In this document: positions 3,421 through 6,658 of the stretch, one piece after another
How the letters are laid out: the number at the start of each line of letters is the position of its first letter
How positions within the stretch are numbered: the first letter of the stretch is position 1
Assembly (NCBI GenBank): GCA_002404055.1
Contig: DHIZ01000416.1
Coordinates: 1-6,980, forward strand
From: Chloroflexi bacterium UBA4733
Lineage (GTDB): Bacteria > Chloroflexota > UBA4733
Reading direction: 5' to 3'
DNA length: 6,980 nt
Position numbers and translations under genes: made by a program
Notes under the pieces: generated by a model
Databases searched by the model: none
What the model saw: only the letters and a program-made list of their open reading frames with translations
What the model was told of the DNA's origin: nothing

Positions 3421-3539
3421 GAGACTGCCTCGCCCCGTCGCACCAATTCGGCGCGCGCGGTCACGATGCAGCGTTCAATTTCGGTGCGCCATTCCGCGCT
3501 GAGCGGGATTCGGGGACGGGGCTGGGCCAGTTCCTTCGC
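3417..3539 (-). pseudogene. 3' fragment of a gene truncated at a mobile-element boundary
   Basis: Read on the minus strand, a coding-like stretch (KELAQPRPRIPLSAEW, then IERCIVTARAELVRRGEAVS) runs from the E1 boundary to a TGA at 3417-3419. That TGA overlaps the ATG of the 3025-3420 gene. Its natural start is missing: E1 interrupts it, and with E1 removed a TGA lies nine bases beyond the duplicated site. The 5' part was probably lost when the ISL3 region arrived. The frame stays open back to about 3752 inside E1, but without an ATG or GTG start in that part. Confidence 0.4.
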
Positions 3540-3888
3540 TGTGCTTTGAAGACGTTCTTTGCGGCGAATTGCAATCGAGTCTTGCAGCAAGGAATCGTCG
3601 TCACCAGAGGGAGGCTCGCCGCTGGCCAGTGGGAGGCAGGGCCAAAATTGCAGCTTAGGATTGCGGTCGGGAACGAATTGGGCGGTTGCCGTTGCGGTGA
3701 GGAATCTCGTGCTGCAGCGAAGCCTCTCCTGGGGGCACTGGCATTCCGATCGTCATCCGTTGTCCCATCCCGAACGGACCAACGTGGCCTCTGGGAAACC
3801 CCGCGCCCCCGAGTTTGAAGGTCAAGTCTGCAGCCAGGAATTTGAAGCTCAATCCTGCAGTCTCTGCAAACCCTAACTTCAAAGCACA
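3540..3888 (-). mobile_element. TGTG element E1 (non-autonomous, 349 bp)
   Basis: It is bounded by TGTGCTTTGAAG (3540-3551) and its exact inverse (3877-3888), and flanked by the 5-bp duplication TTCGC (3535-3539 and 3889-3893). Read on the minus strand from 3888, its private word CTGCAG lies at offsets 28, 55 and 171 and CTGCAA at 235. At the far end CTGCAA lies 47 from the terminus and CCGCAA 24 from it, with another CCGCAA near 222. The left end has a hairpin TGCAG-AGA-CTGCA and aligns without gaps to E2 and E3 over about 50 bases. No transposase is encoded. TG...CA ends and 5-bp duplications are typical of Mu/Tn7-type DDE transposition. Its left end faces the ISL3 left terminal repeat 30 bp away. 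Confidence 0.85.
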
Positions 3889-3897
3889 TTCGCCGCC

Positions 3898-3919
3898 TGT
3901 CAAATTACGGCCGTAAGGG
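3898..3919. repeat. 22-bp inverted repeat, right copy (partner 2-23)
   Basis: Perfect inverse of bases 2-23, placed directly outside the perfect terminal repeat of the ISL3 element. Related sequence with the core GCCGTGAA is found just outside the right ISL3 repeat (5759-5772) and outside the right MITE repeat (6298-6311). These outer blocks may belong to the element ends, which would place the real ends 16-22 bp further out than the perfect repeats. Confidence 0.6.
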
Positions 3920-5758
3920 GGTTCTCCGGCACTTTTGGTGCGCGGGTTGAAGCGGTAGGCTGATCTTCCAGGGCGGCATTTCCCCTGGGGGAAGGCTGCA
4001 GCGTGGGACTCGGACAACTGCTGTTTGCAGGCATCAGCGGATTGCGGGTTGAACAGGCGTGGCAGGAGGGGCAGACGCTCCATGTTTCGGCTCGGACGAC
4101 TGGGAAGCGCGCCCACTGTCCGAGTTGTGGCTGCCGCTCTCGATGGAGACACAGTTATTATCAGCGGACCATTGCTGACCTGGCATGCGGCGGTCGGGGC
4201 GTCACGGTCTCGCTGCGGGTACGGCGCTTCTGGTGTCGCGTGCGCTGGTGCCGGCAAAAGGTCTTCTGTGAGCGGCTGCCGGATCTGGCAGCCGCCTGGG
4301 AGCGGCGAAGCCGGCGGCTGCGGGAGCGGCTGCGCGCCATCGCCTTCCGGCTGGGCGGTGAAGTCGGTTCCCAACAGGCTGGCGCTGATGGCACACCGGT
4401 GAGTGCCCGCACGCTGCTGCGGCTCCTGCGGGCGACGCCACCGGCGGCGGCGGGCGCGGTTCGGGTGCTGGGGATCGATGACTGGGCGCGCCGCAAGGGG
4501 CACACCTATGGCACGATCCTCGTGGACCTCGAAGCGCACCAGGTCGTCGACCTCTTGCCGGACCGTACGGCGGCCACCGTCGCCACCTGGCTGCAAGCGC
4601 ATCCAGAGGTCGAAGTGATTAGTCGGGACCGCGGCGGGGCCTACGCGGAGGCGGCTCGGCAAGGCGCGCCGCAAGCGACGCAAGTTGCCGATCGCTGGCA
4701 CCTGCTCTGCAATCTGGGCGATGCCCTGGAACGGCTGTTGGTGCGCAAACTCGACAGTTTGCGTTGCGCCGCTGACGCCGTCGCGCCGCAGACGGAGCCG
4801 GTCGCGGCCGCTCTGTCGGCCCCTTTGGGAGCGATGCCGCAAGGCGAGCCACCGCCAGCCAGCCTGCCAGTGGCGCCGACCGACGTGGCGCCAGCGCCCA
4901 CCGCGGCGGAGCAGGAGCGCGCGGCCAGTCGCCAGCGTCGCCTGGCCCGCTATGACGAGGTGACTGCCTTGCAGGCGCAAGGCCTCGGCATCGCCACGAT
5001 CGCCAAGCGGCTGGGCATGGCACGAAGAACCGTGCGCCGCTTCCTGCGCGCCGACAGCTTTCCGGAGCGCGTCCAGCGGACCGGGCAGTCGGGTCGGCTG
5101 GCCTCCTTCGAAGCGTACTTGCAGCAACGGTGGGAGGAGGGCTGCCAGAATGCCTCCCAACTCTTCCGGGAGATCAAGGCCCAGGGCTATCCCGGCTCCG
5201 CCTCCTACGTCGGCCAGGTCCTTGGCGCCTAGCGGACCGAAGCAGCGCCCACGGGGCGACGACGCACGGGCGCCGTGCTCCCACCAGGGGCACAGCTCCG
5301 TGTGCCGCCGCGCTCACGGCGCTCTGACCGGACGCCAAGGCAGGTGCGCTTCCTGCTGCTGCGTCCCGTCGCCGACTTGAACGAGTCGGACCAGGTCTAC
5401 CGCGCCGCCTTGCTGGGCATCTGCCCCGTGGTGCAGACTGCCCAGCGGCTCGTTGCCGAGTTCCAGCGCGTGGTCAAGACGCACGACATCGGCGCGTTAG
5501 CAGCCTGGCTCACGGCTGCTCAGACGAGCGACGTCCCGGAGTTGCAAGGCTTCGCGCTCGGTATCCGTCAAGACCGCGCCGCCGTGGAGGCCGGGATCAC
5601 CGAGCCCTGGAGTCAAGGCCAGACGGAAGGACAGGTCAATCGCTTGAAAGCAATCAAGCGGACCATGTACGGACGGGCCAACTTCGATCTCCTCCGCCTG
5701 CGCGTGCTGCACCCCACCTGACGACGCTCACCCGCGCACCAAAAGTGCCGGAGAACCC
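3919..5758 (+). mobile_element. ISL3-family insertion sequence, 1840 bp
   Basis: A 29-bp perfect terminal inverted repeat (3919-3947 and 5730-5758) begins GGGTTCTCCGGCACTTTTGG; a GG start is usual for ISL3 elements. It encloses one transposase gene that ends eight bases before the right repeat, so the unit is structurally complete. No 8-bp target duplication, the usual mark of this family, is visible immediately outside. This suggests either that the real ends lie further out or that the flanks have been rearranged. The related sequences outside both repeats favour the first explanation. Both flanks carry a TGTG element, E1 on the left and E2 on the right. The transposase carries a nonsense codon, so movement would need help in trans. 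Confidence 0.85.
4003..5721 (+). pseudogene. tnpA: ISL3-family DDE transposase interrupted by an in-frame amber codon
   Basis: One frame of 572 codons runs through 4003-5721 with a single internal TAG at 5230-5232 (codon 410). It has an N-terminal zinc finger (C39, C42, C78, C83), the first catalytic Asp in GIDDWARRKG (D159/D160), and the second at D209 (SRDRGG). A helix-turn-helix insert follows at about 315-357 (GLGIATIAKRLGMARRTVRR). The catalytic Glu is E542 in QGQTEGQVNRLK, after the stop, followed by the family ending MYGRANFDLLRLRVL. The truncated 409-aa product therefore lacks the third catalytic residue. The amber probably replaces TGG (Trp), one base change. GTG 4003 has GAAGG seven bases upstream. 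A 43-codon bridge between the TAG and GTG 5275 is in the same frame, so no frameshift is needed. Readthrough is possible but unproven. Confidence 0.9.
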
Positions 5759-5787
5759 ACTTTCGCCGTGAATCACTGGTGCAGCTT
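5759..5787. other. Spacer between ISL3 right end and E2, with conserved GCCGTGAA block
   Basis: ACTTTCGCCGTGAA (5759-5772) matches CCTTTGGCCGTGAA after the MITE (6298-6311) at 12 of 14 positions, and is related to the inverse of 3905-3918 on the left side of the ISL3 element. The last five bases, AGCTT, are the target duplication of E2. Confidence 0.6.
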
Positions 5788-6103
5788 TGTGCTTTGAAGT
5801 CTTGGTTTGGACTTTGTCCAGCTGCAACCTGCAAATTCCTCCGTCCAACCGTTAGCTGCGGAGCTTGCTCCAGAGGCGTGGTCGAACGCCTCATGCAAGC
5901 GATGCCGTGGTATGGCGACGCTCCTCTGGCAGAATCGCGCTGCGTCGGCGATTCCTCCGTCCAATGCGAAGGGTCAATTCTGTTCCTCCGTCCAAGGCCT
6001 AACCGCAATTCCGGGAACAGCCCGCCAAGCTGCCGCCCCTGCTCCAGAGAATCGGTCCAACCCTAAGCCGCAAGAACTGTCCAATTCGAAACTTCAAAGC
6101 ACA
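5788..6103 (+). mobile_element. TGTG element E2 (non-autonomous, 316 bp)
   Basis: It has exact 12-bp ends TGTGCTTTGAAG and CTTCAAAGCACA, with AGCTT duplicated at 5783-5787 and 6104-6108. The private word GTCCAA occurs at 5843, 5959, 5990, 6055 and 6079, plus GTCCAG at 5816. The complement TTGGAC is at offset 19-24 from both ends. TTCCTCC precedes three copies. Stem-loops include TGGAC-TTT-GTCCA (5808-5820), GAGGCGT/ACGCCTC (5873-5892), GAATCGC/GCGATTC (5932-5954) and CTGTTCC/GGAACAG (5980-6020), the last one enclosing word 4. No coding capacity is credible. It could specify a structured RNA or be a cis-acting mini-transposon. Its left end faces the ISL3 right repeat 29 bp away. Confidence 0.85.
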
Positions 6104-6109
6104 AGCTTC

Positions 6110-6297
6110 GGGTTCTCCGGCACTTTTGATGCTGCCCATTCCTCCGAGATGTCCAGAGGCAGACGAAGTGCCGTTTGGCGTGTCCGCAAACATCAGGTTG
6201 ACCACGGCAGTTCGCTCACCGGTCATCCCCCTTGGACCGCTTGCCATGATATGCACCAAGTGGCTACCACCCCAGCATCAAAAGTGCCGGAGAACCC
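6110..6297. mobile_element. MITE-like element with ISL3-type ends, 188 bp
   Basis: A 25-bp perfect inverted repeat (6110-6134 and 6273-6297) starts with the same GGGTTCTCCGGCACTTTTG as the ISL3 element, then diverges (ATGCTG instead of GTGCGC) in both arms alike. It is therefore not an internal deletion of the neighbouring copy but comes from a related element. The 138-bp interior encodes nothing I recognise and does not resemble the ISL3 interior. No 8-bp duplication is visible. It begins two bases after the E2 end duplication. Likely mobilised in trans by an ISL3-type transposase. Confidence 0.8.
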
Positions 6298-6326
6298 CCT
6301 TTGGCCGTGAAGGCTATGAGCATTAT
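6298..6326. other. Spacer between MITE right end and E3, with conserved GCCGTGAA block
   Basis: CCTTTGGCCGTGAA directly follows the MITE repeat, as ACTTTCGCCGTGAA follows the ISL3 right repeat. The spacer has the same 29-bp length as the one before E2. Its last five bases, ATTAT, are the target duplication of E3. Confidence 0.6.
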
Positions 6327-6653
6327 TGTGCCTTGCAGTCGAGGTTTGCACTGAGTGCAAGAAAAGGCTGCAAATTCCTCAGTGCAATGAGGGGTTGCAC
6401 ATTTTTGTCAGGCGTGACATGAGCGGCTGTCTCTCACCGTGGTCGAGCCTGTACCGCTATTCACGCTCAGGAACGGCCCTCCTTATCCGTTCCTCAGTGC
6501 AATGCACCAGCCCATTTTTGTTCCTCAGTGCAAAGTTCAACTGCAAAAAGCACCGAGCCCGGGGCGACGGTCGCCGAGCACCAGGCGTGGAATGCGGTCT
6601 CCGAGTGCAAACCCAGTTTGCAAAAATGGTGCAAAGTCAGTCTTCAAAGCACA
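6327..6653 (+). mobile_element. TGTG element E3 (non-autonomous, 327 bp)
   Basis: The left end TGTGCCTTGCAG is slightly diverged; the right end CTTCAAAGCACA is exact. ATTAT is duplicated at 6322-6326 and 6654-6658. The private word GTGCAA occurs six times (6355, 6382, 6497, 6528, 6605, 6629), with complement TTGCAC at offset 19-24 from both ends and again at 6395. TTCCTCA precedes three copies. Stems include TTGCAC-TGA-GTGCAA (6346-6360), an 8-bp stem AGGAACGG/CCGTTCCT (6469-6494) placed like the 5932-5954 stem of E2, TTTTTG/CAAAAA around word 4 (6515-6549), and TGCAAAC-CCA-GTTTGCA at word 5. No credible coding sequence. Its left end faces the MITE right repeat. Confidence 0.85.
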
Positions 6654-6658
6654 ATTAT

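What the first reader, a model, noticed from the sequence alone, without database searches (positions are those of the whole stretch)
3540..6653. Private six-base word repeated at fixed positions and changing in concert between copies
E2 uses GTCCAA, E3 GTGCAA and E1 CTGCAA/CTGCAG (sometimes CCGCAA). Offsets from the left end are 28, 55 and 170-171, then 201-202 (about 222 in E1). From the right end the words start 48 and 24 bases before the last base in E2 and E3 (47 and 24 in E1). The complement is at offset 19-24 from both ends in E2 and E3; in E1 it is TTGCAG on the left and TTGCGG on the right. Three base positions therefore vary together at six or more sites per element while the positions stay fixed. 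This looks like a code: either each copy is read by a recognition protein with its own specificity, or the words pair with a cognate arm in an RNA.
Basis: seen in the sequence. Interest (0 to 1): 0.95.

Follow-up and report, generated by a model that had tools for sequence, protein, structure and literature searches.

The report
Mini-transposons with private transposase code words
Three short DNA inserts, each flanked by a 5-base duplication and bearing inverted ends, share one seven-site layout but mark the sites with their own version of a six-base word (with some wobble in one of them), which is likely the address by which a transposase encoded elsewhere would tell its own element from its neighbours.

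Summary
The words are real and non-random. E1 (3540-3888), E2 (5788-6103) and E3 (6327-6653) have TGTGC...GCACA inverted ends and perfect 5-bp target duplications (TTCGC, AGCTT, ATTAT). With E1 reversed, all three hold the same seven two-part 19-bp sites: private word, 7 bases, second word. Word positions 1 and 3 are uniform at 7 of 7 sites within every element and differ between elements (E1 C.G, E3 G.G, E2 G.C); position 2 varies inside E1, so two bases, not three, change in concert. The second word is not element-specific. DNA between the sites is no more alike than shuffled sequence.

The same 6+6+7+6 anatomy, with a word at offset 19 and another at 42-43, is in the ends of Tn402 (R751), read here. 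RNA pairing is not supported. No cognate transposase and no relative elsewhere was found. Words private to a transposon are usual in this class; a one-base-per-step series in neighbours of nearly fixed geometry is the unusual part.

The parts
3540..3888 (-). E1, 349-bp mini-element, standard orientation is the minus strand; private word CYGCAR
   Evidence: inverted ends TGTGCTTTGAAG, TSD TTCGC on both sides; seven sites
3535..3539 (.). E1 target duplication TTCGC, left copy
3889..3893 (.). E1 target duplication TTCGC, right copy
3864..3882 (+). E1 site a, word CTGCAA, second word CTTCAA (tip)
3842..3860 (-). E1 site b, word CTGCAG, second word CTTCAA
3815..3833 (-). E1 site c, word CTGCAG, second word CTTCAA
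3679..3697 (-). E1 site d, word CCGCAA; second word displaced by one base
3648..3666 (-). E1 site e, word CCGCAA, second word CTGCAA
3569..3587 (-). E1 site f, word CTGCAA, second word TTGCAA
3546..3564 (-). E1 site g, word CCGCAA, second word CTTCAA (tip)
5788..6103 (+). E2, 316-bp mini-element; private word GTCCAA
   Evidence: inverted ends, TSD AGCTT
5783..5787 (.). E2 target duplication AGCTT, left copy
6104..6108 (.). E2 target duplication AGCTT, right copy
5794..5812 (-). E2 site a, word GTCCAA, second word CTTCAA (tip)
5816..5834 (+). E2 site b, word GTCCAG, second word CTGCAA
5843..5861 (+). E2 site c, word GTCCAA, second word CTGCGG
5959..5977 (+). E2 site d, word GTCCAA, second word GGTCAA
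5990..6008 (+). E2 site e, word GTCCAA, second word CCGCAA
6055..6073 (+). E2 site f, word GTCCAA, second word CCGCAA
6079..6097 (+). E2 site g, word GTCCAA, second word CTTCAA (tip)
6327..6653 (+). E3, 327-bp mini-element; private word GTGCAA
   Evidence: inverted ends, TSD ATTAT
6322..6326 (.). E3 target duplication ATTAT, left copy
6654..6658 (.). E3 target duplication ATTAT, right copy
6333..6351 (-). E3 site a, word GTGCAA, second word CTGCAA (tip)
6355..6373 (+). E3 site b, word GTGCAA, second word CTGCAA
6382..6400 (+). E3 site c, word GTGCAA, second word TTGCAC
6497..6515 (+). E3 site d, word GTGCAA, second word GCCCAT (weak)
6528..6546 (+). E3 site e, word GTGCAA, second word CTGCAA
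6605..6623 (+). E3 site f, word GTGCAA, second word TTGCAA
6629..6647 (+). E3 site g, word GTGCAA, second word CTTCAA (tip)

Best explanation
E1, E2 and E3 have the ends and 5-bp target duplications of gene-less mini-transposons, and their repeated words are likely the element-specific half of seven two-part binding sites for transposases of the Tn402/Tn5053 (TniA) kind that would be supplied from elsewhere. Shown: inverted tips TGTGC, target duplications, no room for a transposase gene, and seven sites of the form word - 7 bases - second word, with site a pointing to the left tip and b-g to the right tip. Shown: the tip site at each end has the same 6+6+7+6 = 25-bp plan as Tn402 of R751, with the word at offset 19 and, from the right tip, a second word at 43/43/42 (42 in one end of Tn402). 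Inferred: one DNA-binding domain of the transposase reads the second word, which is alike in all three elements at most sites (weak at d), and the other reads the private word, whose positions 1 and 3 are the address; a transposase pairs only ends that carry its word, cuts at the tips and inserts with a 5-bp stagger. Inferred: each element follows a transposase of a different specificity. The words form a series of single steps, CTGCAA (E1 type, equal to the commonest inner second word of E2 and E3), GTGCAA (E3), GTCCAA (E2), so the specificity probably moved one base at a time; its direction is unknown.
For: Target duplications in 3 of 3. Seven sites at conserved offsets; positions 1 and 3 uniform at 7 of 7 sites in each element, p 5e-5 for positions 1-3; second word not element-specific, p 0.12. 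Six comparisons of inter-site DNA (three pairs, two segments) are no better than shuffles (fraction of shuffles at least as good 0.10-0.91), so the sites are what was kept. Tn402 ends read from R751: TGTCAT-TTTCAG-aagacga-CTGCAC and TGTCGT-TTTCAG-aagacgg-CTGCAC, second word at 42 in one end, inverted word at 50 in the other. The E3 left tip matches Tn402 IRt at 13 of 22 bases after TGT (p < 0.001, uncorrected); the other five tips at 10-11 (p 0.01-0.03). Tn402 TniA shows two N-terminal DNA-binding domain matches, HTH_28 at 26-70 (24.2 bits, just under its cut-off of 25) and HTH_Tnp_Mu_2 (I gamma) at 99-161 (21.4 bits, cut-off 20.5), as a two-part site would need. In a related system base identity in the TnsB sites limits which foreign ends a transposase accepts (PMC10201428, section 13 read).
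Against: Only three elements, all on one contig. No cognate transposase found; the window transposase genes recognised are ISL3 and an IS110 piece. No relative in genome contigs (11 of 11 matches look like chance), in viral contigs or in 398 genomes of one phylum (4 genomes with a match, against 2 for the reversed pattern; none of the 4 with a second end in the 3 kb looked at). E1 is not uniform (CTGCAR at four sites, CCGCAA at three). In 4 of 7 autonomous tni elements the two tips do not bear the identical six-base word, so strict uniformity is not general in the class. Tip likeness to Tn402 is uncorrected over 84 comparisons; other tni tips also reach 10-11, and for the E2 right tip L108 is the better match (11, p 0.007). 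Direct repeats 23 bp apart also fit IS21 (PMC10122671, passages). A 2026 preprint argues that end specificity is weakly encoded in single sites and strongly across all sites, with DNA geometry (PMC13370975, passages); geometry alone would not separate E1-E3.
Confidence: 0.7

Rival explanations
1. The three mini-elements descend independently from three autonomous transposons whose ends already differed; one tolerant transposase, or none, now serves them, and the words are relics with no present meaning.
For: Words that differ between elements are usual in autonomous tni elements. Inter-site DNA is unrelated between E1, E2 and E3.
Against: Relic words would decay site by site; here 7 of 7 sites are intact at positions 1 and 3 in all three, while the DNA between them is randomised. 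Conserved spacing argues for shared descent or shared constraint.
Confidence: 0.2
2. The elements belong to the IS21 (IstA/IstB) branch of the same transposase superfamily.
For: TG...CA ends and direct repeats at the right end 24/24/23 bp apart; IS21 repeats are 23 bp apart (PMC10122671, passages). The 4-8 bp duplication of IS21 is recalled.
Against: IS21 ends hold direct repeats at both ends according to that paper; the left end of E1-E3 has its second site inverted, as in the IRt end of Tn402.
Confidence: 0.12
3. The words are arms of a structured RNA and change together by base-pair compensation.
For: E2 and E3 fold better than shuffles (z -3.1 to -4.8); by sequence, sites a and b could form a short compensated hairpin in all three.
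Against: E1 does not clearly fold better than shuffles (z -1.1, -1.5). Sites b-g have one orientation and cannot pair with each other. No Rfam match over its gathering score. Target duplications are unexplained.
Confidence: 0.04
4. The words are iterons of a small replicon, each set bound by its own initiator protein.
For: Private, repeated, direct-orientation words at fixed spacing.
Against: Inverted tips with 5-bp duplications on a contig with ISL3-type ends and repeats; no initiator family among the 12 window ORFs searched in Pfam.
Confidence: 0.03

Closest known systems
Tn402 / Tn5090 of plasmid R751 and the Tn5053 family (TniA, TniB, TniQ)
   Same: 25-bp inverted ends built as 6+6+7+6, word at offset 19, second word at 42 in one end and an inverted site in the other; 25-bp ends and 5-bp duplications are reported for the family (PMC7765201, passages).
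   Different: E1-E3 have no genes, 316-349 bp instead of about 7.4 kb, other words at the tips (TTGGAC, TTGCAC, TTGCAG/TTGCGG against CTGCAC), seven sites packed into one short element; res-site targeting not shown. No 5-bp duplication was seen at Tn402 in R751 itself.
Tn6606, a tni-less element of the Tn5053 type
   Same: Lacks the tni genes, keeps both ends (except one deleted form), flanked by 5-bp repeats, judged by its authors to have been moved by tni functions in trans (PMC7765201, passages).
   Different: Not compared by sequence here; its site array was not read.
439-bp MITE flanking Tn402-like integrons in Acinetobacter
   Same: Short, gene-less, 25-bp terminal sequences with 18 bp matched, 5-bp duplications (PMC3934969, passages).
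   Different: AT-rich (72%), its ends match no known element according to its author; site array not analysed.
Type I-F3 CRISPR-associated transposons (TnsB site arrays)
   Same: Arrays of transposase sites, constrained spacing, base identity limits cross-mobilisation (PMC10201428, section 13 and passages; PMC13370975, passages).
   Different: Elements with their own genes and RNA-guided targeting; nothing of that kind was recognised in this window.
IS21 family (IstA)
   Same: Multiple repeated sites at each end, spacing near 23 bp (PMC10122671, passages).
   Different: Direct repeats at both ends in IS21; inverted second site at the left end here.

Membership tests
Tn402/Tn5053 (TniA) elements | 25-bp inverted ends starting TGT | tested here: met
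   tips TGTGCT or TGTGCC + 6-7-6 site in 6 of 6 ends
Tn402/Tn5053 (TniA) elements | 5-bp target duplication | tested here: met
   3 of 3 elements
Tn402/Tn5053 (TniA) elements | arrayed two-part 19-bp sites repeating one word | tested here: met
   7 sites per element; same plan read in Tn402
Tn402/Tn5053 (TniA) elements | end sequence close to Tn402 | tested here: inconclusive
   10-13 of 22 bases after TGT against IRt, p < 0.001 to 0.03 uncorrected; some other tni tips reach 10-11
Tn402/Tn5053 (TniA) elements | tniA, tniB, tniQ genes | tested here: not met
   elements are 316-349 bp without such genes; so at most non-autonomous relatives
Tn402/Tn5053 (TniA) elements | insertion at res sites | tested here: inconclusive
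   no resolvase gene recognised among 12 window ORFs (the only resolvase-named match is the HTH_7 domain inside the ISL3 transposase); flanks hold an unidentified TTACGGCCGTAA-like motif
Tn402/Tn5053 (TniA) elements | mobilised by a TniA | not testable with these tools
   needs a cognate gene and an assay
IS21 | direct repeats at both ends | tested here: not met
   left end has its second site inverted to the first
Structured RNA family | conserved fold or Rfam match | tested here: not met
   no Rfam match over its gathering score; E1 not clearly better folded than shuffles

The most novel reading that the evidence does not exclude
The contig holds a natural ladder of transposase specificity: sibling mini-transposons keep one site geometry and one half-site, and change the other half-site by a single base per step (CTGCAA, GTGCAA, GTCCAA) at all seven sites, so that neighbouring, mutually blind TniA systems share one genome. 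End recognition would then rest on a two-base code and not on geometry.
Probability: 0.33. Interest if true: 0.72.

Novelty: new variant of a known kind. Interest (0 to 1): 0.45.

Why it matters
What lets a transposase tell its own ends from those of close relatives is put as an open paradox in PMC13370975 (passages read). E1-E3 are a ready-made test: tips, most of the geometry and one half-site are alike, two bases differ at every site. If each word needs its own transposase, the specificity is a readable base code, and one could see how seven sites and a protein change together. For annotation, the 6-7-6 rule with an offset-19 word gives a way to look for gene-less TniA-type elements.

Tried and rejected
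Searches that led nowhere: end pattern in genome contigs (11 matches, 11 of 11 without a left tip, a word at -49 or a matching duplication before TGTG) and in viral contigs (9, 1 and 14 matches; the 9 and the 14 examined for a left tip without result, the 1 read by eye and judged an unrelated tandem repeat). Eleven genome matches are of the order expected by chance (my estimate, no call: about 30). BLASTN of E1, E2 and E3 against plasmids: short weak matches only, at most 16% of the query. E2 in three genomes and one plasmid: one weak 24-base match. Pattern of the left end in 398 genomes of one phylum: 4 genomes with a match, 2 with the reversed control; no second end within the 3 kb loci; the two identical ones lie in similar flanking sequence and look like a conserved gene. 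One Thermomicrobium plasmid: 4 matches against 14 for the reversed control.

The genome-contig scan was one scan for exact matches to one pattern; relatives with another tip or word would be missed. Chloroflexota, the likely host group by protein names, could not be sampled further, because no genome handle known to be of that phylum was reached. tni genes were sought in other phyla: PF09299 in 3 of 59 genomes, Tn402 TniA in 28 of 299, 0 of 4, 1 of 299 and 1 of 194.

End finding for autonomous tni elements: 26 loci; in 7 I took a pair as possible ends (L044, L076, L077, L078, L079, L080, L099), 4 of them with a 5-bp duplication. One search examined 25 loci, some again; L108 (with duplication) and L111 (20 of 25 bases, no duplication) were added, and L075, L100, L101 and L109 show a single Tn402-type end. 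The remaining loci gave no ends that I trusted. The word table used 7 elements; L079 and L080 were dropped before it because they had no duplication, although Tn402 and L111, which also lack one, were kept (Tn402 as the known reference, L111 for its 20 of 25 match). In that table L099 has no exact extra copy of its own words, 13 of 40 foreign-word cells are not zero, and the two tips differ in their word in L078, L108, L099 and L111 (for these both words were counted). L076 shares the Tn402 word. The E1 words also occur 4 and 3 times in E2 and E3, mostly as their second words.

Rejected: RNA code (six sites in one orientation, E1 not clearly structured), iterons (target duplications), gene conversion between sites (sites lie in unrelated DNA).
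Full report
What is there. Three segments, E1 3540-3888, E2 5788-6103 and E3 6327-6653, begin TGTGC(T/C)TTG(A/C)AG and end CTTCAAAGCACA, and each is flanked by a perfect 5-bp repeat: TTCGC, AGCTT, ATTAT. They are 316-349 bp, too short for a transposase gene. Pfam recognised, among 12 window ORFs, an ISL3 transposase in two pieces, an IS110 fragment, a PpoB2 and a DUF1326 protein. The window is probably a whole metagenome contig: its transposase is listed with a longest contig of 6980 bases, and no genome is held. Host group: of the 120 relatives listed for the PpoB2 protein the nine that bear an organism name are Chloroflexi/Chloroflexota, Ktedonobacteraceae or Dehalococcoidia; the one so named among 120 for the ISL3 protein is of Ktedonobacterales.

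The words. E1 fits E2 and E3 as its reverse complement. In that view there are seven sites, a to g, each reading word - 7 bases - second word. Site a is inverted and its second word lies in the left tip; b-g point right and the second word of g lies in the right tip. Offsets of a, b and c are 19, 28 and 55 in all three; d-e is 31 in all three; f-g 24, 24, 23; g starts 25 from the right end (and sequence). c-d is 116, 115, 136 and e-f 65, 77, 79 (E2, E3, E1). The c-d difference of 20-21 is about two helical turns; the e-f differences of 12 and 14 are not clean turns, so I make nothing of phasing.

The private part. Word by site (a-g): E2 GTCCAA, GTCCAG, then GTCCAA five times; E3 GTGCAA seven times; E1 CTGCAA, CTGCAG, CTGCAG, CCGCAA, CCGCAA, CTGCAA, CCGCAA. 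Positions 1 and 3 are uniform within every element and separate the three. With labels permuted among elements within each site, the mutual information of positions 1-3 is 2.10 against 0.33 expected, p 5e-5, the floor of 20,000 draws; the last three word bases p 0.67, spacer p 0.29, second word p 0.12, upstream 8 bases p 0.03. Single-column p is 0.0015 for positions 1 and 3 and 0.11 for position 2. Word counts exceed shuffles.

What is not conserved. The two long inter-site segments were aligned for the three pairs; scores are no better than shuffles in 6 of 6. So the elements kept tips, most site positions, one half-site and a private half-site while the rest was randomised. That is what one expects of DNA kept for being recognised.

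What it is. Repeated sites, TG tips and short duplications are shared by the MuA/TnsB/TniA/IstA transposases (partly recalled). The best fit that I found is Tn402. Its ends were read from R751: TGTCAT TTTCAG aagacga CTGCAC and TGTCGT TTTCAG aagacgg CTGCAC, the same 6+6+7+6 plan; one end has its second word at 42, the other an inverted word at 50 and a direct one at 88. In E1-E3 the right end has its second word at 42 or 43 and the left end has its second site inverted. The E3 word GTGCAA is one base from the Tn402 word read the same way, GTGCAG. Base matches after TGT, against IRt, are 13 of 22 for the E3 left tip and 10-11 for the other five; suggestive, uncorrected for 84 comparisons, with some other tni tips reaching 10-11. 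Tn402 TniA matches HTH_28 (just under its cut-off) and the Mu I-gamma domain in its N-terminal part, so two reading heads for two half-sites is plausible; which head reads which half is inferred.

Are private words normal? In 7 autonomous tni elements with ends, a word of the tip sites recurs at further sites in 6 of 7 (mean 2.1 extra copies in the first 200 bp of both ends) against 0.48 for foreign words over 40 cells, of which 13 are not zero. In 4 of the 7 the two tips differ in the word by one base or more. Two of the seven share the Tn402 word; the others have TGCGAA, GTGAGA, GTGTGC, TTTCAR or an AGAG word. So a word that differs from element to element is the ordinary state of this class, while strict uniformity as in E2 and E3 is not always met. 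In VchCAST base identity in the TnsB sites limits which foreign ends are accepted (PMC10201428, section 13).

What is unusual. The three elements sit within 3.1 kb, share tips, most spacings and the second half-site, and differ by a one-base path: E1 C.G, E3 G.G, E2 G.C. The E1 word CTGCAA is also a common second word in E2 and E3. Each step is fixed at all seven sites. In the seven literature searches made (listings) and in the passages or section read of six papers I saw no such series; most subscription papers are not held, and the Tn5090/Tn402 site-array paper that I recalled is not.

Limits. Three elements on one contig; no cognate transposase; no relative found. The identification with the TniA branch rests on anatomy and moderate sequence likeness, and IS21 remains possible. 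The claim of several specificities in one genome is inferred.

Noticed in passing
3889-3918, 5759-5787, 6298-6326: All three elements lie 29-30 bp from an ISL3-type end (30, 29, 29 bases), with a TTACGGCCGTAA-like motif between; E2 lies 6 bp from another such end on its other side. A shared target or site preference is possible; not explained.
   Followed up: partly
4003-5721: ISL3 transposase is split: one frame ends at a TAG at 5230-5232 and the rest of the domain is in ORF 5275-5721; the close relatives P0002-P0007 are single proteins of 565-576 aa.
   Followed up: partly
6110-6297: 188-bp segment with the same inverted ends as the ISL3 element: probably a second, unrelated mini-element.
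   Followed up: no
2-23 and 3898-3919: Perfect 22-bp inverted repeat CCCTTACGGCCGTAATTTGACA bounding 3.9 kb with the PpoB2 and DUF1326 genes; by eye, a diverged form stands right of E3.
   Followed up: no
5843-6008, 6382-6546: Sites c, d and e carry TTCCTC just upstream of the word in E2 and E3, with the base before the word also differing between them (C in E2, A in E3); sites a, b, f and g lack it there.
   Followed up: partly
953-1210: Fragment of an IS110-type transposase (PF02371).
   Followed up: no
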